From contig CANLZL010000002.1 of NCBI GenBank assembly GCA_947495575.1, positions 620,001 through 684,000 of the forward strand: DNA of 64,000 nt, given 5' to 3'. The notes under the pieces are model-generated. The model ran no database searches, had not been told where the DNA came from, and saw only the letters and a program-made list of their open reading frames with translations. This document shows positions 5,503-15,441 of this stretch, one piece after another; within the stretch, counting starts at the first letter, position 1; every line of letters begins with the position of its first letter. The position numbers and the translations under genes are program-made. Source of the DNA: an uncultured Nioella sp. Lineage in GTDB: Bacteria; Pseudomonadota; Alphaproteobacteria; Rhodobacterales; Rhodobacteraceae.

Positions 5503-5684
5503 ACCTCCCTCCATACCTAGCTCCATGTTTTGCGCGGTTTTGACCTGCAGGACTGTATTCACTATCCTTTACGACCTGTGATCATTCGGAGTGGCTTCGC
5601 CAAACGGGTCATAGGGTTGCGAGCCCACGCCCCTCATCTGATTGATCCCAAAAGGGTCGATACGTGACCAAGGGGAGTGCCACA

Positions 5685-6878
5685 ATGAAGCAAGTAGCAA
5701 TTTCAATGGAGTTTGCCTGCCGGCTTCTTTTGGGTTTATTCCTTTCGTTTCTGGCCACGTCCTTCGGCAACGCTCAGGAGGTCGAGCTTTACCCTGGGAC
5801 GAATTTTCAGGGTCAGGTGTTGCGTTTAACCAGCAGTGCGCCTGATCTGGACGAATTTGGCTACGACAATGTTGTGTCATCCATCCGCATTTTATCTGGC
5901 CAATGGAGCTTTCATCGCGACGATGGGTTTCAGAACAACAATGGCCCCGCACTGATACTTGGCCCCGGAAACTACGCTGATATTCAGGATCTGAACTTTC
6001 CGCGCAACAGGATGTCTTCGGTCCAACTGCTGCATATTGATGAAGGGAACGGCGACCCTGGCGAACCGCTGACACCCGTTGCGGAATGCCGTCCACCCTA
6101 TCAGGGCCCTGACCGTTTCGGCCGCTGCTTTTTTCGATGTGCCGCAGGGACAGAGCCAAACACAAGGACTGGCGAATGCAGTTGTCTTGCCGGCCATCGC
6201 GAAGTTGGCATTGATGATCAGGGCCGGCGTGTTTGCCAGATTTCAGGCGCAGCGCCGGGTCTTGGTGGTGTGGCCCCAGAGGTGTCTCCGACCGTCAGGC
6301 CCGTGACACAACCCAACCTCGAAGCTCTGCCCCAAACGCCGGTTCGCCCGAATGTTACGCCTCTCCCACAAGGTGAGATTGCAGATTACCGCGTACCAGC
6401 GGGCGAGGCACGGAGAGTGGCCGCCCAAAACGGCTTTACCTTCCTCGTCGAAAGCCGTGGATCAGAGCCTGTGCACGCTTGCGAAATATTCAACGACGCC
6501 GGGTGGGTTGATCTGGTCAGCCGTTATAATCGCGGAAATGAAGGCGGGATTCGACATCTGCTGCAGACTTGTGTTTTTCGCCTGTTTGGCGCGCGCGCTC
6601 TGGCACCAGGATGGGTCATGCTCCAAGACGCACCGGTTTTTGCCTCAGACAATTGCGCCAGCCAGTTTGGCCAGGTTCTGGTTGGCGAACAAAGCCAGCT
6701 GGGCAATCAGCTGTTTACAGGCATGGTGACCGGAAACCCATATCCGGAACAGCCCAATCTGATCATACAGGTTGCCATTAACGTCAATGACAACACGTGT
6801 CGCCGTTTCGAATTTGACTTGAGTGAGATCAGGCTTCGTGGCCCGGCGGGACGTGACTGGCGTGAGGCGTTTCAATAG
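5685..6878 (+). CDS. Secreted beta/gamma-crystallin-like protein with unknown C-terminal domain
   Basis: The signal peptide covers about residues 1-30 (LLLGLFLSFLATSFGNA). Next comes a segment resembling one beta/gamma-crystallin unit: LYPGTNFQG fits the [YF]xxxxFxG Greek-key signature, and SFHRDDGFQ and LILGPGNY follow. Residues about 135-185 are Cys-rich (RCFFRC, CSCLAGH). A Pro-rich linker leads to a C-terminal domain of about 145 residues with several Cys (HACEIFND, QTCVFRLFG) that I do not recognise. I took the ATG at 5685 because AAGGGGAG precedes it; a start 21 bases upstream is possible. It probably acts in the periplasm or outside the cell, perhaps binding Ca2+ or wall material, which is inference. 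Confidence 0.6.
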   Translation: MKQVAISMEFACRLLLGLFLSFLATSFGNAQEVELYPGTNFQGQVLRLTSSAPDLDEFGYDNVVSSIRILSGQWSFHRDDGFQNNNGPALILGPGNYADIQDLNFPRNRMSSVQLLHIDEGNGDPGEPLTPVAECRPPYQGPDRFGRCFFRCAAGTEPNTRTGECSCLAGHREVGIDDQGRRVCQISGAAPGLGGVAPEVSPTVRPVTQPNLEALPQTPVRPNVTPLPQGEIADYRVPAGEARRVAAQNGFTFLVESRGSEPVHACEIFNDAGWVDLVSRYNRGNEGGIRHLLQTCVFRLFGARALAPGWVMLQDAPVFASDNCASQFGQVLVGEQSQLGNQLFTGMVTGNPYPEQPNLIIQVAINVNDNTCRRFEFDLSEIRLRGPAGRDWREAFQ

Positions 6879-6980: not shown

Positions 6981-8246
6981 CTAGCCCGCGCTAGCTGGTT
7001 CTTCCTTGCTGCGCTCGGCATAAATCAAAAGCGGTTGAGCATCTGAGGTTACGGCCTCTTCGTTCACCACCACTTCTTCTACGCCATCGGTGCCGGGCAG
7101 TTCGAACATGGTATCCAGCAGGATATCTTCCATGATCGAGCGCAGGCCGCGCGCGCCGGTTTTGCGTTCAATAGCGCGTTTAGAGATCGCAGAAAGGGCG
7201 TCATCGGTGAATTTCAGCTTCGCATCTTCTAGTTCAAAGAGGCGTTGATACTGTTTGACCAATGCGTTCTTTGGCGCAGTCAGAATGGTCACAAGGGCGT
7301 CTTCGTCCAGGTCTTCCAAGGTCGCAATTACGGGCAGACGACCGACAAATTCCGGGATCAGACCAAATTTCAGCAGATCCTCTGGTTCCAGATCCTTAAA
7401 GTATTCGCCGACGGTCTTCTGTGTTTCGTCGCGAACATCGGCGCCAAACCCCATGGCTGAGCCCTTGCCGCGCTGCGCGATGATCTTGTCGAGTCCAGCA
7501 AAAGCGCCGCCACAGATGAAGAGGATATTGGTTGTGTCCACTTGCAGGAATTCCTGTTGCGGATGCTTGCGCCCGCCCTGTGGCGGCACAGAGGCCACTG
7601 TGCCCTCCATGATCTTCAGAAGCGCCTGCTGCACGCCCTCACCCGACACATCGCGTGTGATCGAAGGGTTGTCGGACTTACGCGTGATCTTGTCGACCTC
7701 GTCGATATAGACGATGCCGCGCTGCGCACGATCAACATTGTATTCCGAGGCCTGAAGCAGCTTGAGAATGATGTTCTCAACATCTTCGCCTACATACCCC
7801 GCTTCTGTCAGCGTGGTGGCGTCGGCCATGGTGAACGGCACATCCAGAATACGGGCCAACGTTTGGGCAAGAAGCGTCTTACCACAGCCAGTTGGACCGA
7901 TCAGGAGAATGTTCGACTTCGCCAGTTCAATATCGGATTTTCCGGAATGGTTCAGGCGTTTGTAGTGGTTGTGAACCGCGACCGACAGCACGCGCTTGGC
8001 GTGGGCCTGCCCGATAACGTAATCGTCCAGAACTTCGCAAATCTCTTTCGGGCTGGGCACGCCATCGGCGGATTTCAGACCGGCTGTCTTGGTTTCTTCA
8101 CGGATAATGTCCATGCAAAGCTCAACGCATTCATCACAGATGAACACAGTTGGGCCCGCGATCAGCTTGCGCACCTCGTGCTGGCTCTTGCCGCAGAAGC
8201 TGCAATAAAGCGTGTTTTTCGAGTCGCCGCTGGAAGAATTCGCCAT
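6981..8246 (-). CDS. clpX: ATP-dependent Clp protease ATP-binding subunit ClpX
   Basis: AAA+ unfoldase of 421 residues that recognises tagged substrates, unfolds them and feeds them to ClpP. The N-terminal zinc-binding domain has four Cys at about residues 15, 18, 37 and 40 (CSFC, CDEC). Walker A is GPTGCGKT at 117-124, Walker B is [10 protein letters not shown], and sensor/arginine-finger elements and pore segments follow ([21 protein letters not shown]). The ClpP-docking IGF-type loop is present as KFGLIPEF. Length and order are canonical. It lies directly downstream of clpP on the same strand, separated by about 170 bases with a perfect stem-loop. Confidence 0.98.
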
Positions 8247-8416: not shown

Positions 8417-9040
8417 TTATGCGTCGTCCGCGTTGCGGTTCTCGACAATCTCGTCAATCAGACCCCAATCCTTGGCCTGCTCTGCATCCATGAAATTGTC
8501 GCGTTCCAGAGCATCAACCACGGCTTCAAATTTTTGGCCGGTATGTTTGACATAGATCTGGTTCAGACGGTCCTTTAGCTTTTGCGTTTCTTGCGCATGG
8601 ATCATGATATCAGTGGCCTGACCCTGGTACCCGCCGGATGGCTGGTGAACCATGATACGGCTGTTGGGCAACGAAAAGCGCATGCCGGGTTCGCCGGCAG
8701 TCAAAAGTAGTGACCCCATCGAGGCCGCCTGCCCTACGCACAGCGTGGACACTTTCGGTTTGATATATTGCATGGTGTCGTAAATCGACAATCCACTGGT
8801 CACAACGCCGCCGGGACTGTTGATATACATAGAGATTTCCTTGGACGGGTTTTCCGCCTCAAGGTGCAAAAGCTGCGCCACGATTAGGCTGGACATACCA
8901 TCATGCACCGGGCCGGAGAGGAAAATAATCCGCTCTTTCAGCAGACGCGAAAAGATATCATATGCGCGCTCACCCCGGCTGGTCTGCTCAACGACCATCG
9001 GAACGAGGGTATTCATGTAAAACTCTTGGGGATCTCTCAT
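8417..9040 (-). CDS. clpP: ATP-dependent Clp protease proteolytic subunit ClpP
   Basis: Serine protease of 207 residues that forms the tetradecameric chamber used by ClpX and ClpA. The catalytic triad is Ser107 (GQAASMGS), His132 (MVHQPSGG) and Asp181 (LERDNFM), all at canonical spacing. The oxyanion and strand motif [10 protein letters not shown] is present. I chose the ATG at 9040 because the protein then begins [10 protein letters not shown], as in close relatives, with GAGGC upstream; the longer reading frame adds 34 unrelated residues. It is followed by clpX. The TIR-WD40 gene lies upstream on the same strand. Confidence 0.97.
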
Positions 9041-9172
9041 AACGCCTGCCTCAGCTAAAGCTCTTCTGTTCGACAAGATGCTATGGTCGGGGTTCGGGGA
9101 CTGCAAGGGGCGGTGAACAGTTTTCCAGCAATGCATCTGCACGCGGACCCCGCGCGATGCCTGATGCCGGTC

Positions 9173-11509
9173 TCAGCCGCCGCCAAGAATGCTCAACACC
9201 AGCGACCAGCGCGGTCCAAGCTCGACACCAACACAAGGGTCGTCTTCACTGGTGTCCGTGGCATCATCAGCCACAGAAAGCAAACGATGGCCATCTTCAA
9301 ATGGCAACAGCCTACAGGCCGTGCGAAACAGGTCACTTTCCATGCTGTGAACGGACATTACACGACGATCACCATTGTTGTCCCAGCTGACAACATAGCG
9401 TCCATCCGGCGAGAAATCGGCGCTGACATAAGTGATCAGCAAATCGCTTGCATGCTCGTAGGCGTGAATTTCCTGGCCGGTATGTGTGTCCCAGATGCGC
9501 ACAAACCCGTCGATCGACCCTGTAACAAGCAAACGCTCGTCGGCAGAAAGCGCCATCGACGTGACGGCCGCCAGCCTGTGGCGCAGGCGATCCTGGTAGA
9601 CCGGCGGACCGCCCGCCTGATTGTGCGACAAGATCAGGACATCCTCTTGGTTTGGTTCAACCATCACCGACAATGTTTCTGTTTCAATCCGCCCGGCTGA
9701 CAAGTTCTGCCGGGCCTGACTTTCCTGTTGCACTTCAAGGGCCGATCCGCCGGGGATATCGCGATGAAATTGCCATGTAGAAATGTCAAAAATGCGCATG
9801 TGACCTGCTTGGTCAAACGTCATCAGGACATCACCGGAGGGCGAAAATTGCACCCCTTCGACCGGGCTGCGATGCCCGCGTAGCGTGGTCAAAACTTTTC
9901 CGGTCGCGGTGTCATGAATGCGTGCGCGCTTGTCAGAGGCACCAACTGCGAGGCTTAACCCGTCCGGGCTGAGGCCAATGGAACTGATGAAGATGTCGTC
10001 CTGGTTCAGCACAGTCGGCGGCAAAACCTCGGTCAGCGTTGTCAGGTCCCAGATCGCAGCCGTCGTGCGCCCCGCCATCGCAACGGTGCTGCCGTCCAAT
10101 GAAACATCCATGGCAATGATTGGCTCTGGCAGTTCTGACAGGCGGTGCAACATGTCGGGACCCCGCCCGCCCAAGGCCGGCACCATATCGACCACCATAA
10201 CCGCATTGTCCAGGACGGCCACAAGGCGAGGCGAATTGGGCACAAAAGCCAATTCGGTGACACTGCCATCCTGCCCCAGGTCTATGGGATCTCTTACAGA
10301 GCGTCCCGATAACATGGAATGAAAGTACAACTGGTTGTCAGCCGTTGCTACAACCAGCGTGTCGCCCTCATCCGAAAGCGCCGCAGCCAAAATGGGGTGA
10401 GCGCCGCTATATCTCAGGCCTGCCCAACTGCCGTCAGCCGGGTTCCACACGGTCACGCGGGTGTCCCGGATCATCACGAACCGTCCATTGTCGTTGATGA
10501 CCAGCGGGGCCGGACTACTGGATGGCATTTCCAAAGTGGATTCCGTCAGCGCCCCTGTGTCCGGATCAAATTCAACGGTGCTGCCATCTAATGTGGCCGC
10601 AACCACATGGCCGGTCTCTGGCATGAATTCTACGAAATGCGCTGCTATTTCCGGCAAAGTGATAGTGGCCCGCAACCTTTGGCGTTCCACTGTATCACCA
10701 AGCGTTTCCAAAACATCCAACCATGCCCGATCTGCATTGCAAAGAGTAAACTCGGACAAGGGAAGCAATGTTCGGATTGCCAAAACCGGTTCGAGAGAGC
10801 GGGCCAGCTCTGCGCGGCGGTAAAACTCATCGCATTGCGAATTGCTGAGGTAGTTTAACCCAAAAAGTAGCCCGACAACGGTCGCCAGTGTGCCCAGAAT
10901 CGTCGACCCGATTTGGGTCCATTTCCGACGTCTAAGGCCCGCCTTGAGGTATAGCCAATGCTCGGTCGAGGGGGATGGCGCGCCACTGGGATGGCGTTCG
11001 ATCCAGCTGCGCATCGCCCTAAGCTCACGCCCCCATAACGTACCCACCTGACCGCGCACCCACCGGTTGGCAAGATCGCCATAACGCGTGTGGTCGCGAA
11101 CCCATGTGATATCGCGCCCTAACGCATCGTCCAGACGGCCAAGCGCGCTGTCCCAATCCCCGTCCTGCCCATAGAAGCGGACATAGTTGATTTCTCGGAT
11201 CGCACTGGGTAGATCGGCGCCGACATCTTCGAAAGCCGCGGGAAGGATGCGTTTGTTCAGCTCAAGCGAAAAGTGCATTTCCTGGCGACAAGCAGGTGAT
11301 GTGATCCAATTTGGCCCAAGAACGAAAACCACAACATCAGAGGCCTGAACCATCTCGCGAATGCGGTCAGTGATGTTTTCGGCCTCAAAAATCCCTTCTC
11401 GGTCAATGAAAACCTCATGACCAAGCCCCTTCAGCCCGTCGAACAGGAAATCAGCCCGCTCACGATCCTTGTGCGAATAAGAAATGAAGATTCGGGACGC
11501 GTCGCTCAT
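9173..11509 (-). CDS. TIR domain - transmembrane - WD40 repeat protein
   Basis: A protein of about 778 residues. It starts with a TIR domain (IFISYSHKDRERADFLFDG, then ITSPACRQEM, KRILPAAF). The Glu of SPACRQE sits where the catalytic NADase glutamate of TIR domains usually lies. Around residue 200 a positively charged GLRRRKW precedes one transmembrane helix (STILGTLATVVGLLFGLNYL). The rest is a beta-propeller with degenerate WD40 units (FSPSGDVLMTFDQAGHMRIF, RIWDTHTGQEI, FSPDGRYVVSWDNNGD). By the positive-inside rule the TIR is cytoplasmic and the propeller periplasmic. NAD+ cleavage or TIR signalling triggered by an external ligand is inference. I took MSDASRIF as the start (11509); an ATG 15 bases upstream also fits. 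There is no clear ribosome binding site for either. Confidence 0.75.
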   Translation of the reverse strand: MSDASRIFISYSHKDRERADFLFDGLKGLGHEVFIDREGIFEAENITDRIREMVQASDVVVFVLGPNWITSPACRQEMHFSLELNKRILPAAFEDVGADLPSAIREINYVRFYGQDGDWDSALGRLDDALGRDITWVRDHTRYGDLANRWVRGQVGTLWGRELRAMRSWIERHPSGAPSPSTEHWLYLKAGLRRRKWTQIGSTILGTLATVVGLLFGLNYLSNSQCDEFYRRAELARSLEPVLAIRTLLPLSEFTLCNADRAWLDVLETLGDTVERQRLRATITLPEIAAHFVEFMPETGHVVAATLDGSTVEFDPDTGALTESTLEMPSSSPAPLVINDNGRFVMIRDTRVTVWNPADGSWAGLRYSGAHPILAAALSDEGDTLVVATADNQLYFHSMLSGRSVRDPIDLGQDGSVTELAFVPNSPRLVAVLDNAVMVVDMVPALGGRGPDMLHRLSELPEPIIAMDVSLDGSTVAMAGRTTAAIWDLTTLTEVLPPTVLNQDDIFISSIGLSPDGLSLAVGASDKRARIHDTATGKVLTTLRGHRSPVEGVQFSPSGDVLMTFDQAGHMRIFDISTWQFHRDIPGGSALEVQQESQARQNLSAGRIETETLSVMVEPNQEDVLILSHNQAGGPPVYQDRLRHRLAAVTSMALSADERLLVTGSIDGFVRIWDTHTGQEIHAYEHASDLLITYVSADFSPDGRYVVSWDNNGDRRVMSVHSMESDLFRTACRLLPFEDGHRLLSVADDATDTSEDDPCVGVELGPRWSLVLSILGGG

Positions 11510-11710
11510 CCGAACATAAAGCATCGACGCGGGTAATAAATCCAGTGCCGACAGGGTCTTGTGGAGCGAATCCCGGGTGTAGATTCGACAGTTTCATGAA
11601 AAATGAATTCCGGAACGCCGCCATCGCGCGTTCCCAGTTGTGATTTTTTATTACTTAGATACAGGGTCTTACATGGTTTCCGTGGGTTTTTCACCGGAAT
11701 TCCCAATAAG

Positions 11711-11725
11711 TGTGTTTACAACACA
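11711..11725. promoter_or_regulatory. Inverted repeat TGTGTT-TAC-AACACA, candidate operator
   Basis: TGTGTT (11711-11716) and AACACA (11720-11725) are perfect complements around TAC. The repeat lies in the AT-rich divergent region upstream of both the TIR gene and the NrtR-like gene, so it could be a binding site of the latter. It is 8 bases from a second inverted repeat. Confidence 0.4.
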
Positions 11726-11733
11726 TTTATTTA

Positions 11734-11748
11734 GTGTCATAAAGACAC
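11734..11748. promoter_or_regulatory. Inverted repeat GTGTC-ATAAA-GACAC, candidate operator
   Basis: GTGTC (11734-11738) and GACAC (11744-11748) are perfect complements around ATAAA. Its centre is 23 bases from the centre of the neighbouring repeat, about two helical turns. That spacing suits two regulator dimers on one DNA face. Confidence 0.4.
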
Positions 11749-12053
11749 CATAATTTAACAACATCACTTAAGACCTACTTCAAACTCTACCAGATCAAAC
11801 GGATTTCTTCAGACCTTCCTTCATTTCTTTTTCTTTCTTCCTTTTTTCCTCCCAATGACGATCCGTCCCCTTGTCCCTGTCCCTTTGGATCGTCCGGCCG
11901 GCCCTCTTTGTCCCAGGGGGTCGGCCATTTTTCTTGACCTGACTGGCGTCGCGTGGTGTTTTGATGACACGATCGCCGGTAAGCCATCGACCGCCCGACA
12001 GAATTGGGCAAAAAACGAAAGGGTTGGGCCAAATGTGCCCGACAGAGGCAGAC

Positions 12054-12722
12054 ATGAGTTTTACATATGAGTATCCGCATCCAGCGGTCACAGCCGATAT
12101 TTGCATATTCTCGATCCGGGAAGGCAAATTGCATGTTCTTCTGATCGAACGACTGGCGGAACCTTTCGTCGGATCATGGGCGATCCCAGGCGGTTTTATC
12201 AAGATGGACGAAGACCTTGTCACCGGCGCATTGCGTGAGCTGGAAGAGGAAACCGGCGTTGCCGGTGTTCCACTGGAACAGTTGGGCGCTTATGGCGCGC
12301 CCGATCGCGACCCGCGGGAACGTGTGATCACCATCGCATTTTTGGCGCTTGTGCCCTCGGACCAAATGGTTTTGGCGGCCGCAACAGACGCGTCCGATGC
12401 CCGCTGGTTTGATATGGATGAGTTGCCCCCCCTTGCCTTCGATCATGACGTGATCTTGGCCGATGCACGGGCAAAGCTGGCTGATAAGGTCACCAACCGG
12501 GTGACAGAAACCGCGAAGTCAGCCTTTCAGTTCTTGCCGAAAAAATTCACCCTGGCCCAAGCGCAGGCTGTGTTTGAAACACTCAAAGGCGAAGAACTGG
12601 ACAAACGCAATTTTCGCAAGTGGATTGCCGCCAATTGGGAGTTGACCGATCTCAAGGAAAAGACGTCCGGCGGGCGCCACAGACCGGCAGCCCTCTATTC
12701 CGTGGATTTCGCCGCAGACTGA
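12054..12722 (+). CDS. NrtR-like Nudix-winged-helix protein
   Basis: The 222-residue protein has a Nudix domain followed by a C-terminal winged helix. The Nudix box is complete: GGFIKMDED then RELEEETGV fits Gx5Ex7REUxEExGU. The C-terminal region FLPKKFTLAQAQAVFE, LDKRNFRKWIA and RHRPAALYSVD matches the DNA-binding part of the NrtR family. NrtR proteins repress or activate NAD-metabolism genes and sense ADP-ribose-type ligands; many lack catalytic residues, but this box looks intact, so hydrolase activity is possible. The ATG at 12054 follows AGAGGCAG. Divergent from the TIR protein, whose predicted product class (ADP-ribose) is the ligand class of this family. No NAD-biosynthesis gene is nearby. 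Confidence 0.78.
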   Translation: MSFTYEYPHPAVTADICIFSIREGKLHVLLIERLAEPFVGSWAIPGGFIKMDEDLVTGALRELEEETGVAGVPLEQLGAYGAPDRDPRERVITIAFLALVPSDQMVLAAATDASDARWFDMDELPPLAFDHDVILADARAKLADKVTNRVTETAKSAFQFLPKKFTLAQAQAVFETLKGEELDKRNFRKWIAANWELTDLKEKTSGGRHRPAALYSVDFAAD

Positions 12723-12785: not shown

Positions 12786-13259
12786 ATGCGATTGACCATT
12801 CGCACCAATATCGCCATGCGCACGTTGATGACCTGCGCCGTAAATCCGGATTGCACCTTACGCAAGGCAGAGGTGGCAGAGGCCTGCGGCGTGTCCGAGG
12901 CACATTTGGGACTGGTCATTCACCAGCTCTCCAAAACCGGGTTTCTAGAGACATTGCGGGGTCGTAATGGCGGCATCCGCTTGAAAGTGCCACCATCAGC
13001 CATCAGCGTTGGCCGGGTGTTCCGTGTCTTCGAGGCGAATACGCCCTTTGCCGAGTGCTTTTCGGCTATCGACAATCACTGCCCGCTGGCTTGTTCGTGC
13101 AAATTGCGCCCTGCGCTCGATGCGGCCTTGGACGCCTTTTATGCCTCGCTTGATGGGGTAACTCTGGCCGATCTGACAACTGACAACCCCGGCCTAAAAA
13201 AGCTTTTGTCCTGTGGACCGATTGCTCAGGCTTTGGAAAAAAGCCCCGTCACATCGTAA
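12786..13259 (+). CDS. Rrf2-family (NsrR/IscR-like) transcriptional regulator
   Basis: A 157-residue protein opening MRLTIRTNIAMRTLM, as in NsrR/Rrf2 repressors. It has a winged helix (VAEACGVSEAHLGLVIHQLS, LRGRNGGIRLKVP) and a cysteine cluster at about residues 91, 99, 103 and 105 (AECFSAIDNHCPLACSC) placed like the [Fe-S] ligands of NsrR. NO, redox or sulfide-stress sensing through an iron-sulfur cluster is therefore likely. Its 3' end overlaps the convergent sulfur-operon gene by 34 bases, suggesting regulation of that operon (inference). Strong GAGGGGAG upstream. Confidence 0.82.
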   Translation: MRLTIRTNIAMRTLMTCAVNPDCTLRKAEVAEACGVSEAHLGLVIHQLSKTGFLETLRGRNGGIRLKVPPSAISVGRVFRVFEANTPFAECFSAIDNHCPLACSCKLRPALDAALDAFYASLDGVTLADLTTDNPGLKKLLSCGPIAQALEKSPVTS

Positions 13260-13633
13260 CCAGCAGCTTCGGCGGCCGCCGCGATATCCTCTTGTGACAT
13301 TTGATCTGTCTGGGCGTAGGACCATAGTTGCGCACATCGGGTTCCCGTGCGGCAATAGGCAAAAACTGGTTTGGGCAGCTCGGCCAGCTTGGCGCGAAAC
13401 TCGGCCCCATCCTCCTTGCACACCGTTCCAGAAATCACTGGCTGAAAGCAGGTAGTCATGCCCAATTTTTGTGCAGCAGCCTCAATCTCGGCCCAGTTCG
13501 GCTGATCAGGCGTTTCGCCATCGGGGCGATTACAAATGATGGACGCGAACCCAAGCTCTTTGATTCGCGCCAAATCGCTGATTTCAATCTGCGGGGACAC
13601 AACAACTTCGTCGCTGATGCGTTTGATTTCCAT
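13226..13633 (-). CDS. DUF442 / TIGR01244 sulfurtransferase-phosphatase-like protein
   Basis: The 135-residue protein has the family core VVVSPQIEISDLARIKELGF, SIICNRPDGETPDQP, and the Cx5R signature CRTGTR (Cys94-Arg99) in a phosphatase-like or rhodanese-like loop. In many proteobacteria this domain is fused to, or encoded next to, an ETHE1-like metallo-beta-lactamase and is linked to sulfide and persulfide metabolism. Here it is the separate downstream gene of such a pair. The start at 13633 follows AAAGGGGAA. A start at 13660 overlapping the previous stop is possible but lacks a good ribosome binding site. Confidence 0.82.
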   Translation of the reverse strand: MEIKRISDEVVVSPQIEISDLARIKELGFASIICNRPDGETPDQPNWAEIEAAAQKLGMTTCFQPVISGTVCKEDGAEFRAKLAELPKPVFAYCRTGTRCAQLWSYAQTDQMSQEDIAAAAEAAGYDVTGLFSKA

Positions 13634-13656
13634 AGTCTTTTCCCCTTTCGCGATCT

Positions 13657-14538
13657 TCAAAGCCCGTTTACGGGCACTTTGAGAACCGGATTGCCATCCT
13701 TGTCGCGGGGGATTTCACCTGCTCGCATGTTGACCTGCAAGGAGGGAATGATGAGTTTCGGCACATCAAGCTGTGCATCTCTTTCGGTTCTGAACTTGAT
13801 GAACTCTTCTCGCGTCTTGCCGCCACCCACATGAATGTTGTGTGCTTTCTCTTCTGCGACCGAGGTTTCCCACTGAATATCGCGCCCATTGGGTCCGTAG
13901 TCGTGGCACATGAACAGGCGCATGTCGTCGGGCAGTGACAGCACTTTCTGGATTGAGTCATAAAGCTCACCCGCGTCGCCCCCCGGGAAATCCGCGCGGG
14001 CCGAACCACCATCAGGCATAAAAAGCGTATCCCCTACAAAGGCCGCATTCCCCATGACATGAACCATGCATGCGGGCGTGTGGCCTGGTGTATAGATCGT
14101 CAGCGCCGTCAAATCACCAATCTGGTACGTGTCACCATCCTCAAACAGCTTATCGAACTGGCTTCCGTCGCGTTGAAATTCGGTGCCTTCGTTAAAGATC
14201 TTTCCGAACGTGTCCTGAATGACCATGATCTTCGAGCCGACGCCGATCTTTCCGCCCAGTTTTTCCTGAATATACGGAGCCGCTGAAAGGTGGTCAGCAT
14301 GAACATGCGTCTCGATCAGCCAATCAAGGGTCAGGCCGTTTTCGGTGATGTAGGCAATCATCTCATCGGCATGAACATAGGTGATCCGCCCTGCCGCATA
14401 GTCGATATCCATGACAGAATCGATGATGGCACAATGGCTGGAGGCCGGATCCTTCACCACGTAACTGATCGTATTTGTGGCCTCGTCAAAGAAGGCTTTG
14501 ACCTCAGGTTTGATCGTCATTTCAACGGGATAGGTCAT
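13657..14538 (-). CDS. ETHE1-like persulfide dioxygenase family MBL-fold hydrolase (Blh type)
   Basis: The 293-residue MBL-fold protein has the metal motif THVHADH at about residues 77-83 (His78, His80, Asp82, His83), TPGHTPACMVH, VGDTLFMPDGGSAR and MCHDYGPN, all diagnostic of the ETHE1/Blh group rather than glyoxalase II. These iron enzymes oxidise glutathione persulfide to sulfite during sulfide detoxification. It lies in the operon 15441-13226: two YeeE/YedE-like membrane halves, this enzyme, then DUF442. This order is known from BigR-controlled operons of alphaproteobacteria. AGGAGG-type bases precede the ATG (reverse of cctccttctt). Confidence 0.9.
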   Translation of the reverse strand: MTYPVEMTIKPEVKAFFDEATNTISYVVKDPASSHCAIIDSVMDIDYAAGRITYVHADEMIAYITENGLTLDWLIETHVHADHLSAAPYIQEKLGGKIGVGSKIMVIQDTFGKIFNEGTEFQRDGSQFDKLFEDGDTYQIGDLTALTIYTPGHTPACMVHVMGNAAFVGDTLFMPDGGSARADFPGGDAGELYDSIQKVLSLPDDMRLFMCHDYGPNGRDIQWETSVAEEKAHNIHVGGGKTREEFIKFRTERDAQLDVPKLIIPSLQVNMRAGEIPRDKDGNPVLKVPVNGL

Positions 14539-14562
14539 ATTTCCTCCTTCTTCGAATTATGG

Positions 14563-15006
14563 TCAGGCTTGGGTTGGCGCAGGCGGCCTGCGGAAGGTCA
14601 TCAGCATTCTGGCTGCAAGAATACCTGCAATCATCGCTGCCACGAACAGGATAACATCGGTTTGGCCGGTCCCTAGTGCCGGAATCGCGCCGCCCGGGCA
14701 GAATCCGGACAGGCCCCAGCCGATGCCAAACAGTGCCGAGCCGCCAAGCAACTTGCCATCAAGGTCCCGCGCCGTCGGCACCAAAAACTCTTTGTCCAAG
14801 ATGGGCCCGGCGTTGTGGCCAAGCACATACCGATAGCCAAAAAATGTGACAAGCAGAGCCGCCCCCATGACAAAGGCAAGACTGGGGTCCCACGTCCCGG
14901 CAACGTCGAAAAAGTTCAGCACCTTCGCGGGATTGGCCATGCCGGATAGAGAAATACCAAGTCCAAATATCGCGCCAATCACGTAAGCGGTCAGAATACG
15001 TTTCAT
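14563..15006 (-). CDS. YeeE/YedE-family sulfur-compound transporter half (DUF6691/PmpB-like)
   Basis: A 147-residue membrane protein with about four helices (VIGAIFGLGISLSG, LAFVMGAALLVTFFGY, DVILFVAAMIAGILAARML) and the signature GIGWGLSGFCPGGAIPALG, whose Cys is conserved in thiosulfate and sulfide channels of the YeeE family. It is one half of a two-gene transporter, with the other half encoded immediately upstream. Import of a reduced sulfur species for the downstream persulfide dioxygenase, or its export, is inferred from context. Confidence 0.85.
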   Translation of the reverse strand: MKRILTAYVIGAIFGLGISLSGMANPAKVLNFFDVAGTWDPSLAFVMGAALLVTFFGYRYVLGHNAGPILDKEFLVPTARDLDGKLLGGSALFGIGWGLSGFCPGGAIPALGTGQTDVILFVAAMIAGILAARMLMTFRRPPAPTQA

Positions 15007-15009
15007 CGC

Positions 15010-15441
15010 TCAGGCTCCGATCAGATGGCGGGTGGCATAGACCGTCACCCCGCAAGCAAACATGAAGGTCAGGGTGGCCGCAATCGACCGCGGTGATAGC
15101 CGCGCCATGCCGCAAACCCCGTGGCCGGACGTGCAGCCAGAACCATAGGTGACGCCCATTCCCACGATAAACCCACCGATCAACATTTGCGGGGTCGAGA
15201 TTGGCACCTGCACGGCTGGGAACCCTCCGGTAAGGCCAAGGTAGATCACCGGACCCGTGATCATGCCCGCGACAACAGCCGCACGCCAAAGGAAGTCAGC
15301 GCGCGACGCAGGCGTCAAAAGCCCCGCCAAAATGCCTGTCGCGCCCATGATCCGGCCAAGCGTCAGCATCAAAAGAACGGCGGATGCGCCGATCAGGCCG
15401 CCACCTATCGCACTTGCGATCGGAGTAAATTCAGTTTCCAT
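15010..15441 (-). CDS. YeeE/YedE-family sulfur-compound transporter half (PmpA-like)
   Basis: First gene of the sulfur operon. The 143-residue membrane protein has helices AIGGGLIGASAVLLMLTLG, VAGMITGPVIYLGL, MLIGGFIVGMGVTYGSG and AATLTFMFACGVTVYA. The motif YGSGCTSGHGVCGMARLS carries the conserved Cys pair of YeeE/YedE sulfur channels. It is separated by only three bases from the partner half. The promoter must lie in the 220 bases shared with the divergent methyltransferase gene. I could not identify a BigR-type operator there with confidence. Confidence 0.86.
   Translation of the reverse strand: METEFTPIASAIGGGLIGASAVLLMLTLGRIMGATGILAGLLTPASRADFLWRAAVVAGMITGPVIYLGLTGGFPAVQVPISTPQMLIGGFIVGMGVTYGSGCTSGHGVCGMARLSPRSIAATLTFMFACGVTVYATRHLIGA

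What the first reader, a model, noticed from the sequence alone, without database searches (positions are those of the whole stretch)
9173..11509. TIR - single TM - WD40 protein with predicted periplasmic propeller
TIR at the N-terminus with the NADase-type Glu (SPACRQE), a positively charged stretch before one helix, then a WD40 propeller. Topology would place the propeller outside the cytoplasm, which makes this a receptor-like NADase rather than a cytosolic TIR-STAND defence protein. It is encoded upstream of clpP and clpX.
Basis: partly seen in the sequence, partly recalled or inferred. Interest (0 to 1): 0.62.

Follow-up and report, generated by a model that had tools for sequence, protein, structure and literature searches.

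The report
Membrane TIR receptor paired with NrtR
In a group of marine bacteria, a membrane protein laid out like an animal Toll-like receptor (sensor probably outside, TIR domain inside) sits beside a gene regulator of a kind that can sense a TIR reaction product, and both share DNA control sites with genes for secreted proteins, suggesting an unrecognised way for bacteria to signal across their membrane.

Summary
In detail: window 9173-11509 (-) encodes TIR (E77), a K/R-flanked TM helix and a WD40 propeller, upstream of clpP-clpX. A periplasmic propeller fits the charge bias and the Cys beyond the TM, which are kept or lost in pairs. NADase activity is untested. The tighter link is the divergent neighbour, an NrtR-family Nudix-wHTH regulator: adjacent in 10 of 11 full-length relatives found (clpPX in 9). 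In 295 family genomes this NrtR occurs in 6: the five with the receptor, plus one where a split locus appears to put it near a TIR-TM-TPR gene. A palindrome, TTAGTGT-N7-ACACTAA, precedes TIR and nrtR, also precedes a distant NrtR homolog in another family, and recurs before secreted-protein genes (PPC-like 'CPxY' family, I78 inhibitors, curlin-repeat protein); it is absent before 28 readable CPxY promoters of nrtR-less genomes. No NAD-biosynthesis gene was recognised among targets. Best reading: a transmembrane TIR receptor whose NAD+ cleavage informs an ADP-ribose-type repressor of an envelope regulon. Pairing and operators are computed; enzyme activity, ligand and circuit are inferred. Cautions: the nearest solved structure is arabinose-sensing AraR, and genome-wide motif counts only partly exceed a reversed-pattern control.

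The parts
9173..11509 (-). TIR - single TM - WD40 protein (778 aa)
11132..11491 (-). TIR domain, residues 7-126; candidate catalytic E77 at 11279-11281
   Evidence: Pfam TIR_2 77 bits vs cut-off 28; E77 in 10 of 10 rows
10913..11131 (-). helical linker (residues 127-199) with the RRRK stretch; shared with TIR proteins that have other C-terminal halves
10856..10912 (-). predicted transmembrane helix, residues 200-218
   Evidence: hydropathy; AF2 continuous helix 182-237
9350..10642 (-). WD40 propeller (about residues 290-720), predicted periplasmic
9233..10834 (-). span of four Cys codons beyond the TM: C226, C257, C732, C759, proposed as two disulfides
12054..12722 (+). divergent NrtR-family regulator (Nudix + NrtR_WHD, 222 aa) with an intact Nudix signature
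   Evidence: Pfam; NCBIfam NF050029 132 bits, below cut-off 400; A4; Nudix motif and R33/R88
11709..11725 (.). candidate operator 1, AGTGT-N7-ACAC, on the TIR side
11733..11749 (.). candidate operator 2, AGTGT-N7-ACAC, on the TIR side
11955..11971 (.). candidate operator 3, GTGT-N7-ACAC, about 80 bp before nrtR
11896..11926 (+). terminator-like hairpin between operators and nrtR; in Alterinioella it lies between the CPxY gene and nrtR
8417..9142 (-). clpP (likely ATG near 9040), downstream neighbour in 9 of 11 relatives
6981..8246 (-). clpX

Best explanation
A transmembrane signalling unit. The WD40 propeller faces the periplasm and, through the single TM helix, controls the cytoplasmic TIR. 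When activated, the TIR cleaves NAD+ to ADP-ribose or a relative; this binds the Nudix domain of the divergently encoded NrtR-type repressor, which leaves its TTAGTGT-N7-ACACTAA operators and derepresses the receptor gene, its own gene and a set of secreted/envelope genes (PPC-like CPxY proteins, I78 inhibitors, a curlin-repeat protein and others). The regulator's intact Nudix signature could also hydrolyse ADP-ribose and end the signal. Computed: domains, topology signals, pairing with nrtR, shared palindrome, secreted targets. Inferred: NADase activity, ligand, repressor sign and the causal loop. What the propeller senses is unknown (a co-regulated secreted protein is a candidate).
For: nrtR is the divergent neighbour in 10 of 11 loci with a match over nearly the whole protein (window plus L173-L181; exception L182). 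Of 295 family genomes, 6 hold this NrtR (E<=1e-40) and 5 hold the full-length receptor, all 5 among the 6 (Fisher p 3e-10, genomes treated as independent). In the sixth, G051, the contig with a TIR-TM-TPR gene ends in the same tandem palindromes (24 bp apart, one of the two 15-mers identical to the window's) beside the start of a small secreted gene, and the nrtR contig ends in the tail of a gene whose closest matches are the same two proteins of L105, so the two ends are probably one locus. At least one strict GTGT-N7-ACAC lies on the TIR side and one before nrtR in 5 of 5 aligned genomes and 9 of 10 nrtR-bearing loci. A distant NrtR homolog in another family (G416) has TTAGTGTTATATTAACACTA about 10 bp before its start and a divergent gene with a signal-peptide-like start. 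The site precedes CPxY genes in 5 of 5 nrtR+ genomes (8 of 17 genes, 3 of the 17 unreadable at a locus edge) and in 0 of 25 nrtR- genomes (0 of 30 genes, 2 unreadable). In the four closest genomes 49 of 54 strict sites are intergenic and 28 of 54 lie within 260 bp of a signal-peptide-like start, against 14% and 6% of background positions. I78 and curlin Pfam hits among targets. R33 and R88 align with SoNrtR Arg41 and Arg98, which contact ADP-ribose; AraR has Gly at the second (PMC4666351 passages). Precedent: in P. aeruginosa a hyperactive mutant of the NADase toxin NatT derepresses the NrtR target pncB1 in a subpopulation, requiring active NatT (PMC11535050 passages).
Against: No enzymatic or binding data. 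The regulator's nearest solved relative by sequence is the arabinose-responsive AraR (141 bits), ahead of SoNrtR (93 bits); the NrtR equivalog cut-off is not reached. Genome-wide counts exceed the reversed-pattern control only in part: AGTGTN7ACACT true/control per strand 3/1, 7/4, 3/7, 3/3, 8/1 in G000, G001, G037, G187, G209; AGTGTN7ACAC both strands 16/9 in G000 and 23/19, 14/13, 22/6, 13/32 in G001, G187, G209, G037. In G037 6 of 10 strict matches lie inside genes. L180 has only a degenerate site. TIR-TM-WD40 proteins without any nrtR in view exist: L182 (7.6 kb contig) and G617 (1.5 kb flanks). In G051 the TIR gene points towards the palindromes rather than away from them, so it may not be under their control. 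TLR1 shares the Glu position. TIR could make a cyclic product that NrtR does not bind. P-values ignore shared ancestry.
Confidence: 0.44

Rival explanations
1. One-way control: NrtR regulates the receptor gene together with other envelope genes, but the TIR output does not feed back on NrtR. The TIR acts as an NADase effector, for example in defence or growth arrest, when the propeller detects envelope damage or attack.
For: Shared palindromes explain the co-regulation without feedback. Best named TIR relatives are defence proteins (PADLOC SAVED_TIR and ThsB; Thoeris III ThcB4). The receptor is patchy: 5 of 295 family genomes.
Against: Repeated pairing of a NAD+-cleaving fold with a Nudix ADP-ribose-type regulator (10 of 11 loci; probably a different TIR-TM protein in G051) would be a coincidence. 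Recognised targets are secreted proteins, not defence genes. The two NCBIfam defence models hit are far below cut-off.
Confidence: 0.3
2. The palindrome belongs to another transcription factor and nrtR is merely one of its targets.
For: Assigned by location and co-occurrence, not by binding; NrtR motifs vary between taxa (PMC5343134 and PMC4666351 passages); counts only partly exceed the reversed-pattern control.
Against: Absent before CPxY genes in 25 nrtR- genomes; present before nrtR in 5 of 5 aligned genomes, before a distant NrtR in another family and beside the split nrtR locus of G051; a mycobacterial NrtR palindrome has the same N7 spacer (PMC6800001 passages).
Confidence: 0.09
3. The hydrophobic helix does not cross the membrane, or crosses the other way, and the propeller is a cytoplasmic scaffold.
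For: The segment is only moderately hydrophobic (best 19-residue mean KD 1.75-2.71 in the full-length relatives) and the AF2 model runs it into longer helices.
Against: Charge asymmetry in 10 of 10 rows and even, pairwise-lost Cys beyond the helix; co-regulated genes are largely secreted.
Confidence: 0.1
4. The TIR is an enzymatically dead assembly domain, as in TLRs, recruiting an unknown partner; NrtR senses ADP-ribose from elsewhere.
For: Closest PDB sequence is human TLR1 TIR (E 0.0025).
Against: Glu kept in 10 of 10 rows; a TIR_2 search of the own genome finds no second TIR at E<=0.001 to assemble with.
Confidence: 0.1

Closest known systems
Animal Toll-like receptors
   Same: Predicted extracytoplasmic repeat sensor, one TM helix, cytoplasmic TIR; TLR1 is the best PDB sequence match
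   Different: Chain order reversed, WD40 instead of LRR, and proposed output through a nucleotide rather than MyD88
Thoeris (ThsB TIR plus ThsA) and other bacterial TIR NADase systems
   Same: TIR fold with the Glu position; weak profile hits
   Different: ThcB4 model 40 bits vs cut-off 220; membrane receptor; no SIR2/SLOG protein among the eight neighbours scanned (best 25 matches shown for one of them); linked to a transcription factor
NrtR regulators (Shewanella, Mycobacterium, Pseudomonas) and NatT-NrtR in P. aeruginosa
   Same: Nudix + wHTH, palindrome incl. own promoter, R33/R88 as in SoNrtR; NatT shows an NADase derepressing an NrtR target in vivo (PMC11535050 passages)
   Different: Intact Nudix signature, different palindrome; recognised targets are secreted proteins and a TIR receptor rather than NAD genes
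AraR (Bacteroides), NrtR-family arabinose regulator
   Same: Nearest solved structure by sequence
   Different: AraR has Gly where the window protein and SoNrtR have the ADPR-contacting Arg; its Nudix motif is degenerate (PMC4666351 passages)
Nudix-HTH regulators of ARG conflict systems (Viruses 2022, PMC9503650, passages)
   Same: Nudix transcription factor proposed to sense ADP-ribose beside NAD-related enzymes
   Different: No TIR receptor or secreted regulon in the passages seen
TIR-linker-TM-TPR proteins of the same family (L036, L038)
   Same: Same TIR, linker and K/R-flanked TM (about 35% identity; L036 residues 5-235, L038 residues 5-188); L038 lies beside the palindromes and probably near nrtR
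   Different: TPR-like (by eye) instead of propeller, no Cys beyond the TM; L036 has no nrtR in its 20 kb
TIR-TM-WD40 proteins of other families (L182 Xanthobacteraceae MAG; G617)
   Same: Same architecture, 28% identity for L182
   Different: No nrtR and no palindrome in the stretches held

Membership tests
TIR domain family | Pfam TIR profile over its cut-off | tested here: met
   TIR_2 77 bits vs 28
TIR NADase | conserved Glu in helix alphaC (position recalled from SARM1/plant TIRs) | tested here: met
   E77 in 10 of 10 rows; not diagnostic, as TLR1 shares it
TIR NADase | NAD+ cleavage | not testable with these tools
   needs assay
TIR-STAND defence proteins | STAND/NB-ARC/NACHT NTPase domain between TIR and repeats | tested here: not met
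   residues 127-290 scanned alone: 0 Pfam families up to E 1
Thoeris | Thoeris TIR protein over model cut-off | tested here: not met
   ThcB4 40 bits vs cut-off 220
NrtR family | Nudix domain plus NrtR winged helix | tested here: met
   NUDIX 74.6 bits vs 21.1, NrtR_WHD 73.4 vs 27
NrtR family | NrtR equivalog model (NF050029) cut-off | tested here: not met
   132 bits vs 400
ADPR-responsive NrtR | arginines contacting ADP-ribose (SoNrtR Arg41, Arg98) | tested here: met
   R33 and R88 in 5 of 5 (residues from PMC4666351 passages); I assumed a 3-residue tag offset in the PDB chains, which also places AraR Arg34 and Gly89 as that paper states
ADPR-responsive NrtR | impaired Nudix signature | tested here: not met
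   GX5EX7REUXEEXGU intact in 5 of 5
ADPR-responsive NrtR | controls NAD metabolism genes | tested here: inconclusive
   no NAD-biosynthesis gene recognised by eye beside the strict sites read; weaker sites not searched
ADPR-responsive NrtR | ADP-ribose releases it from DNA | not testable with these tools
   needs assay
Toll-like receptor architecture | extracytoplasmic sensor, single TM, cytoplasmic TIR | tested here: met
   by prediction only, opposite chain order
Toll-like receptor architecture | LRR ectodomain | tested here: not met
   WD40 propeller

The most novel reading that the evidence does not exclude
Bacteria possess a Toll-like transmembrane signalling pathway in which a periplasmic sensor (WD40, or TPR in a variant) drives a cytoplasmic TIR NADase, and NAD+-derived ADP-ribose acts as a second messenger on a bifunctional Nudix repressor/hydrolase to switch on an envelope regulon that may include the receptor's own secreted partner, with no kinase, sigma factor or protease involved.
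Probability: 0.35. Interest if true: 0.92.

Novelty: new variant of a known kind. Interest (0 to 1): 0.73.

Why it matters
Bacterial TIR domains are known mainly as cytosolic defence enzymes; what their membrane-anchored forms do is open. A receptor-regulator pair with mapped candidate operators makes the question testable in a marine genus of which isolates are sequenced: does an outside signal change NAD+-derived nucleotides and thereby transcription? If so, the Toll-like layout (sensor outside, TIR inside) has a bacterial counterpart with a nucleotide-based output.

Tried and rejected
clpP as functional partner: rejected as the defining link, because Pseudohalocynthiibacter keeps nrtR without clpP. 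Read-through into clpPX is possible: no terminator was called between the TIR stop and clpP; the same scan found no sigma-70-like promoter in 8900-12200.

Loci dropped from the ortholog count: of the 11 loci, L183 (Synechococcus, residues 230-747 only, no TIR match) is left out; L182 (28%, residues 5-751) is counted as the one without nrtR.

NadQ operator in the own genome (consensus from PMC5343134 passages): strict pattern 0 hits, inconclusive.

Class-level searches: the receptor alignment matched 16 of 385 genomes at E<=1e-25; only the own genome matched as one full-length piece, while G617 has a TIR-TM-WD40 frame matched in two pieces, with no nrtR in its 1.5 kb flanks. NrtR at E<=1e-50: 2 of 385; G416 has no receptor homolog within 1.5 kb but has the palindrome.

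AF2 of the receptor: mean pLDDT 73.5, pTM 0.43, ten rows; domain placement is not interpretable and no coordinates were available, so Cys-Cys distances were not measured. The Foldseek rows shown are propeller proteins and propeller-bearing complexes.

CPxY fold: PPC/collagen-binding-domain-like beta sandwich, Z about 8-9 to TKSP and ColG domains; matches to a clostridial enterotoxin domain at about 8-14% identity are read as a common fold only. Rfam on the intergenic region: nothing up to E 1. No convincing remnant of a CPxY gene in the window's intergenic region (2 bits).

Literature, open-licence library only: NrtR with TIR domain, 2 papers, neither describing this pair in the passages seen; TIR-WD40 and membrane-anchored TIR terms, 2 papers: PMC7075850 (passages; its one mention is Hydra) and PMC6043800 (listing only); passages also of PMC7159879 and PMC10907252; other combinations seen as listings and abstract starts. 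Huang 2009 and Rodionov 2008 are not held and are known here only through other papers.
Full report
Observation. The minus-strand ORF 9173-11509 encodes 778 residues: TIR (7-126), a helical linker with no Pfam match, one hydrophobic segment (200-218) preceded by RRRK, a short helical part, and a WD40 propeller (about 290-720). clpP and clpX follow on the same strand.

Topology. There is no N-terminal signal sequence, so with a single crossing helix the TIR stays inside and the propeller goes outside. Charge supports this: 4-6 K/R in the 15 residues before the helix and 1-4 after it in the ten rows of A5, window included. Cys give independent support. Beyond the helix there are four Cys (226, 257, 732, 759 in the window) at equivalent positions in eight of ten rows; Pseudohalocynthiibacter (28% identical) lacks the first two and keeps the last two; the Xanthobacteraceae relative also has four. 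L180, counted apart because of unknown residues, has four. The TIR side has one or two Cys (three in L180), and five rows have one Cys inside the helix. Other family TIR-TM proteins have 0 or 2 beyond the helix. Even, pairwise-lost Cys are what disulfides in an oxidising compartment would leave; this is inference. The AF2 model (pLDDT 73.5, pTM 0.43) has one continuous helix through the segment but cannot place the domains.

Distribution and the neighbour that matters. In 295 genomes of the family a match over nearly the whole protein occurs in 5 (the window's genome, G001, G187, G209, G037); 61 of 295 have some match, the rest covering only the TIR-linker-TM part, TIR alone or WD40 alone. The regulator 12054-12722 was found at E<=1e-40 in 6 of the same 295: those 5 plus G051. 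Over the 11 nearly full-length cases (window, nine loci, L182), nrtR is the divergent neighbour in 10 and clpP-clpX the downstream neighbour in 9; L182 has neither on its 7.6 kb contig. At class level G617 also has the architecture, with no nrtR in its short flanks. So the architecture is wider than the pairing, and the pairing is a feature of the Nioella-like group and Pseudohalocynthiibacter.

The sixth nrtR genome. In G051 nrtR lies at the end of one contig, and a TIR-TM-TPR gene near the start of another. The start of the second contig holds two palindromes 24 bp apart, as in the window, about 200 bp from the TIR stop, and the first 26 residues of a small secreted protein; the end of the first contig, before nrtR, holds the last 23 residues of a secreted protein. 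Both fragments match best the same two small proteins of Alterinioella (L105), one of which has the palindrome 22 bp upstream. The likely order is TIR-TM-TPR, palindromes, small secreted gene, nrtR, all on one strand. The contig ends share no 14-base word, so this is an inference; and there the TIR gene ends, rather than starts, at the palindromes. If right, nrtR goes with TIR-TM proteins whose outer halves differ.

The regulator. It is a Nudix + NrtR winged-helix protein. Its best named model is the ADPR-responsive repressor, below the cut-off. Its nearest solved relative by sequence is AraR, an arabinose-responsive member, then (among named regulators) SoNrtR, so similarity does not settle the ligand. 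Residue evidence leans to ADP-ribose: R33 and R88 align with Arg41 and Arg98 of SoNrtR, which contact ADP-ribose, while AraR has Gly at the second place (PMC4666351 passages; alignment; 5 of 5 orthologs). Unlike the NrtR and AraR proteins described there, whose Nudix signature is impaired, this one keeps the signature in 5 of 5, so it might also destroy its ligand.

Palindromes. Aligning the region between nrtR and the TIR gene in five genomes shows one strict GTGT-N7-ACAC before nrtR in 5 of 5, and a tandem pair on the TIR side: both strict in the window and G037, one strict and one degenerate in the other three. Among the ten nrtR-bearing loci nine keep strict cores on both sides; the MAG L180 has a degenerate one. 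The consensus from 49 intergenic sites is roughly TTAGTGT-N7-ACACTAA. In another family, G416's NrtR homolog has TTAGTGTTATATTAACACTA about 10 bp before its start, and its divergent gene has a signal-peptide-like start. A mycobacterial NrtR palindrome has the same spacer length (PMC6800001 passages).

Regulon. Strict AGTGT-N7-ACAC sites were listed in the own genome and four relatives, and their surroundings read. Targets shared between genomes: the receptor (5 of 5); a secreted CPxY family with four Cys invariant in 9 of 9 aligned members (5 of 5 genomes); a secreted protein divergent from an exonuclease gene (4 of 5); a small secreted I78 peptidase inhibitor (4 of 5; Pfam hit in both members scanned); another secreted protein (3); a curlin-repeat protein (2; Pfam hit in the one scanned). 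In G209 and G037 the CPxY gene lies between the palindromes and nrtR. No NAD-biosynthesis gene was recognised by eye; in Rhodobacterales those are reported under NadQ (PMC5343134 passages), whose strict site I did not find here.

Controls. (a) AGTGT-N7-ACACT per genome: 3, 7, 3, 3, 8 in G000, G001, G037, G187, G209 against a mean of 0.32 in the other 290, G051 included with one. The reversed pattern in the same five gives 1, 4, 7, 3, 1, so raw counts exceed it in three of five; the excesses of G209 (+7) and G001 (+3) are the two largest of the 295 and G000 (+2) ties with four genomes without this NrtR (G006, G165, G235, G241). For the shorter pattern, both strands, true/control is 16/9, 23/19, 13/32, 14/13, 22/6 in the same order. 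Counts alone are therefore weak evidence. (b) Upstream of CPxY genes: strict core in 8 of 17 genes of the five nrtR+ genomes (3 unreadable at a locus edge) and 0 of 30 genes in 25 nrtR- genomes (2 unreadable); these are 25 of the 45 nrtR- genomes with the family, those for which loci were returned. (c) In the four closest genomes 49 of 54 sites are intergenic and 28 of 54 precede a signal-peptide-like start within 260 bp; background positions (window and three 20 kb contexts) give 14% and 6%; among intergenic positions only, 26 of 49 against 19%. Signal peptides were judged by a simple rule and genes by codon-position GC, and the genomes are related, so p-values are indicative. (d) In G037, 6 of the 7 strict matches outside the receptor locus lie inside genes; there the regulon seems local.

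Mechanism. The pairing of a NAD+-cleaving fold with an ADP-ribose-type regulator suggests that the TIR product is the regulator's signal. Precedent: a hyperactive NatT mutant derepresses the NrtR target pncB1 in a subpopulation of P. aeruginosa, requiring active NatT (PMC11535050 passages). The secreted targets make sense of a periplasmic sensor. My estimates: periplasmic propeller 0.85; NrtR binds the palindromes 0.88; TIR is an NADase 0.7; ADP-ribose or a relative is the NrtR ligand 0.5; full loop 0.35-0.45. The main rival is one-way control of an NADase effector.

Novelty. Components are known kinds; the receptor-regulator pair, its palindrome and the secreted regulon were not found in the open-licence literature searched. 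Subscription papers were not searched.

Noticed in passing
window 11896-11926 and alignment A1 columns 170-270: Two adjacent strong hairpins (GGCCGGCC... and GACGATCC...GGATCGTC) conserved in four genomes between the TIR-side palindromes and nrtR; in Alterinioella they follow the CPxY gene, so in the window they may be a terminator left after loss of that gene, or end a small transcript.
   Followed up: partly
L067 1364-6882; L128 4198-10100; L108 298-3515; L142 1-3348: Tandem clusters of secreted CPxY genes, some with repeated domains, in Nioella-like genomes; family in 51 of 295 family genomes, no Pfam family over cut-off in the two members scanned.
   Followed up: partly
L205 2133-2270 (G416): NrtR homolog in another family with a near-perfect palindrome before its start and a divergent secreted-protein gene: a possible second, TIR-less setting of the same regulator.
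   Followed up: partly
L038 1-3423 and L074 9602-10461 (G051): Probable single locus split over two contigs: nrtR, small secreted gene, tandem palindromes, TIR-TM-TPR.
   Followed up: partly
L036 8633-10822, L039 11855-13459: Same TIR-linker-TM front half joined to TPR-like (by eye) or unknown C-terminal halves: a modular set of membrane TIR proteins.
   Followed up: partly
L042 6265-9321: Protein with N-terminal TIR, an NTPase-like middle, a hydrophobic helix and a C-terminal sulfatase-modifying-factor-like domain (domain names by eye), with eight Cys beyond the helix.
   Followed up: no
window 12786-15441: Rrf2-family regulator, BLH-like phosphatase, metallo-beta-lactamase fold protein (Pfam) and two YeeE/YedE-like membrane proteins (by eye): looks like a sulfide/persulfide response locus.
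   Followed up: no
window 5664-6878: 404-aa protein with a beta/gamma-crystallin domain (Pfam E 9e-14).
   Followed up: no
L073 4701, L113 2033, L131 2002, L139 2034: Palindrome in four genomes near genes that look like a universal stress protein and an fnr-type regulator (by eye, from L073), without an obvious downstream start.
   Followed up: no
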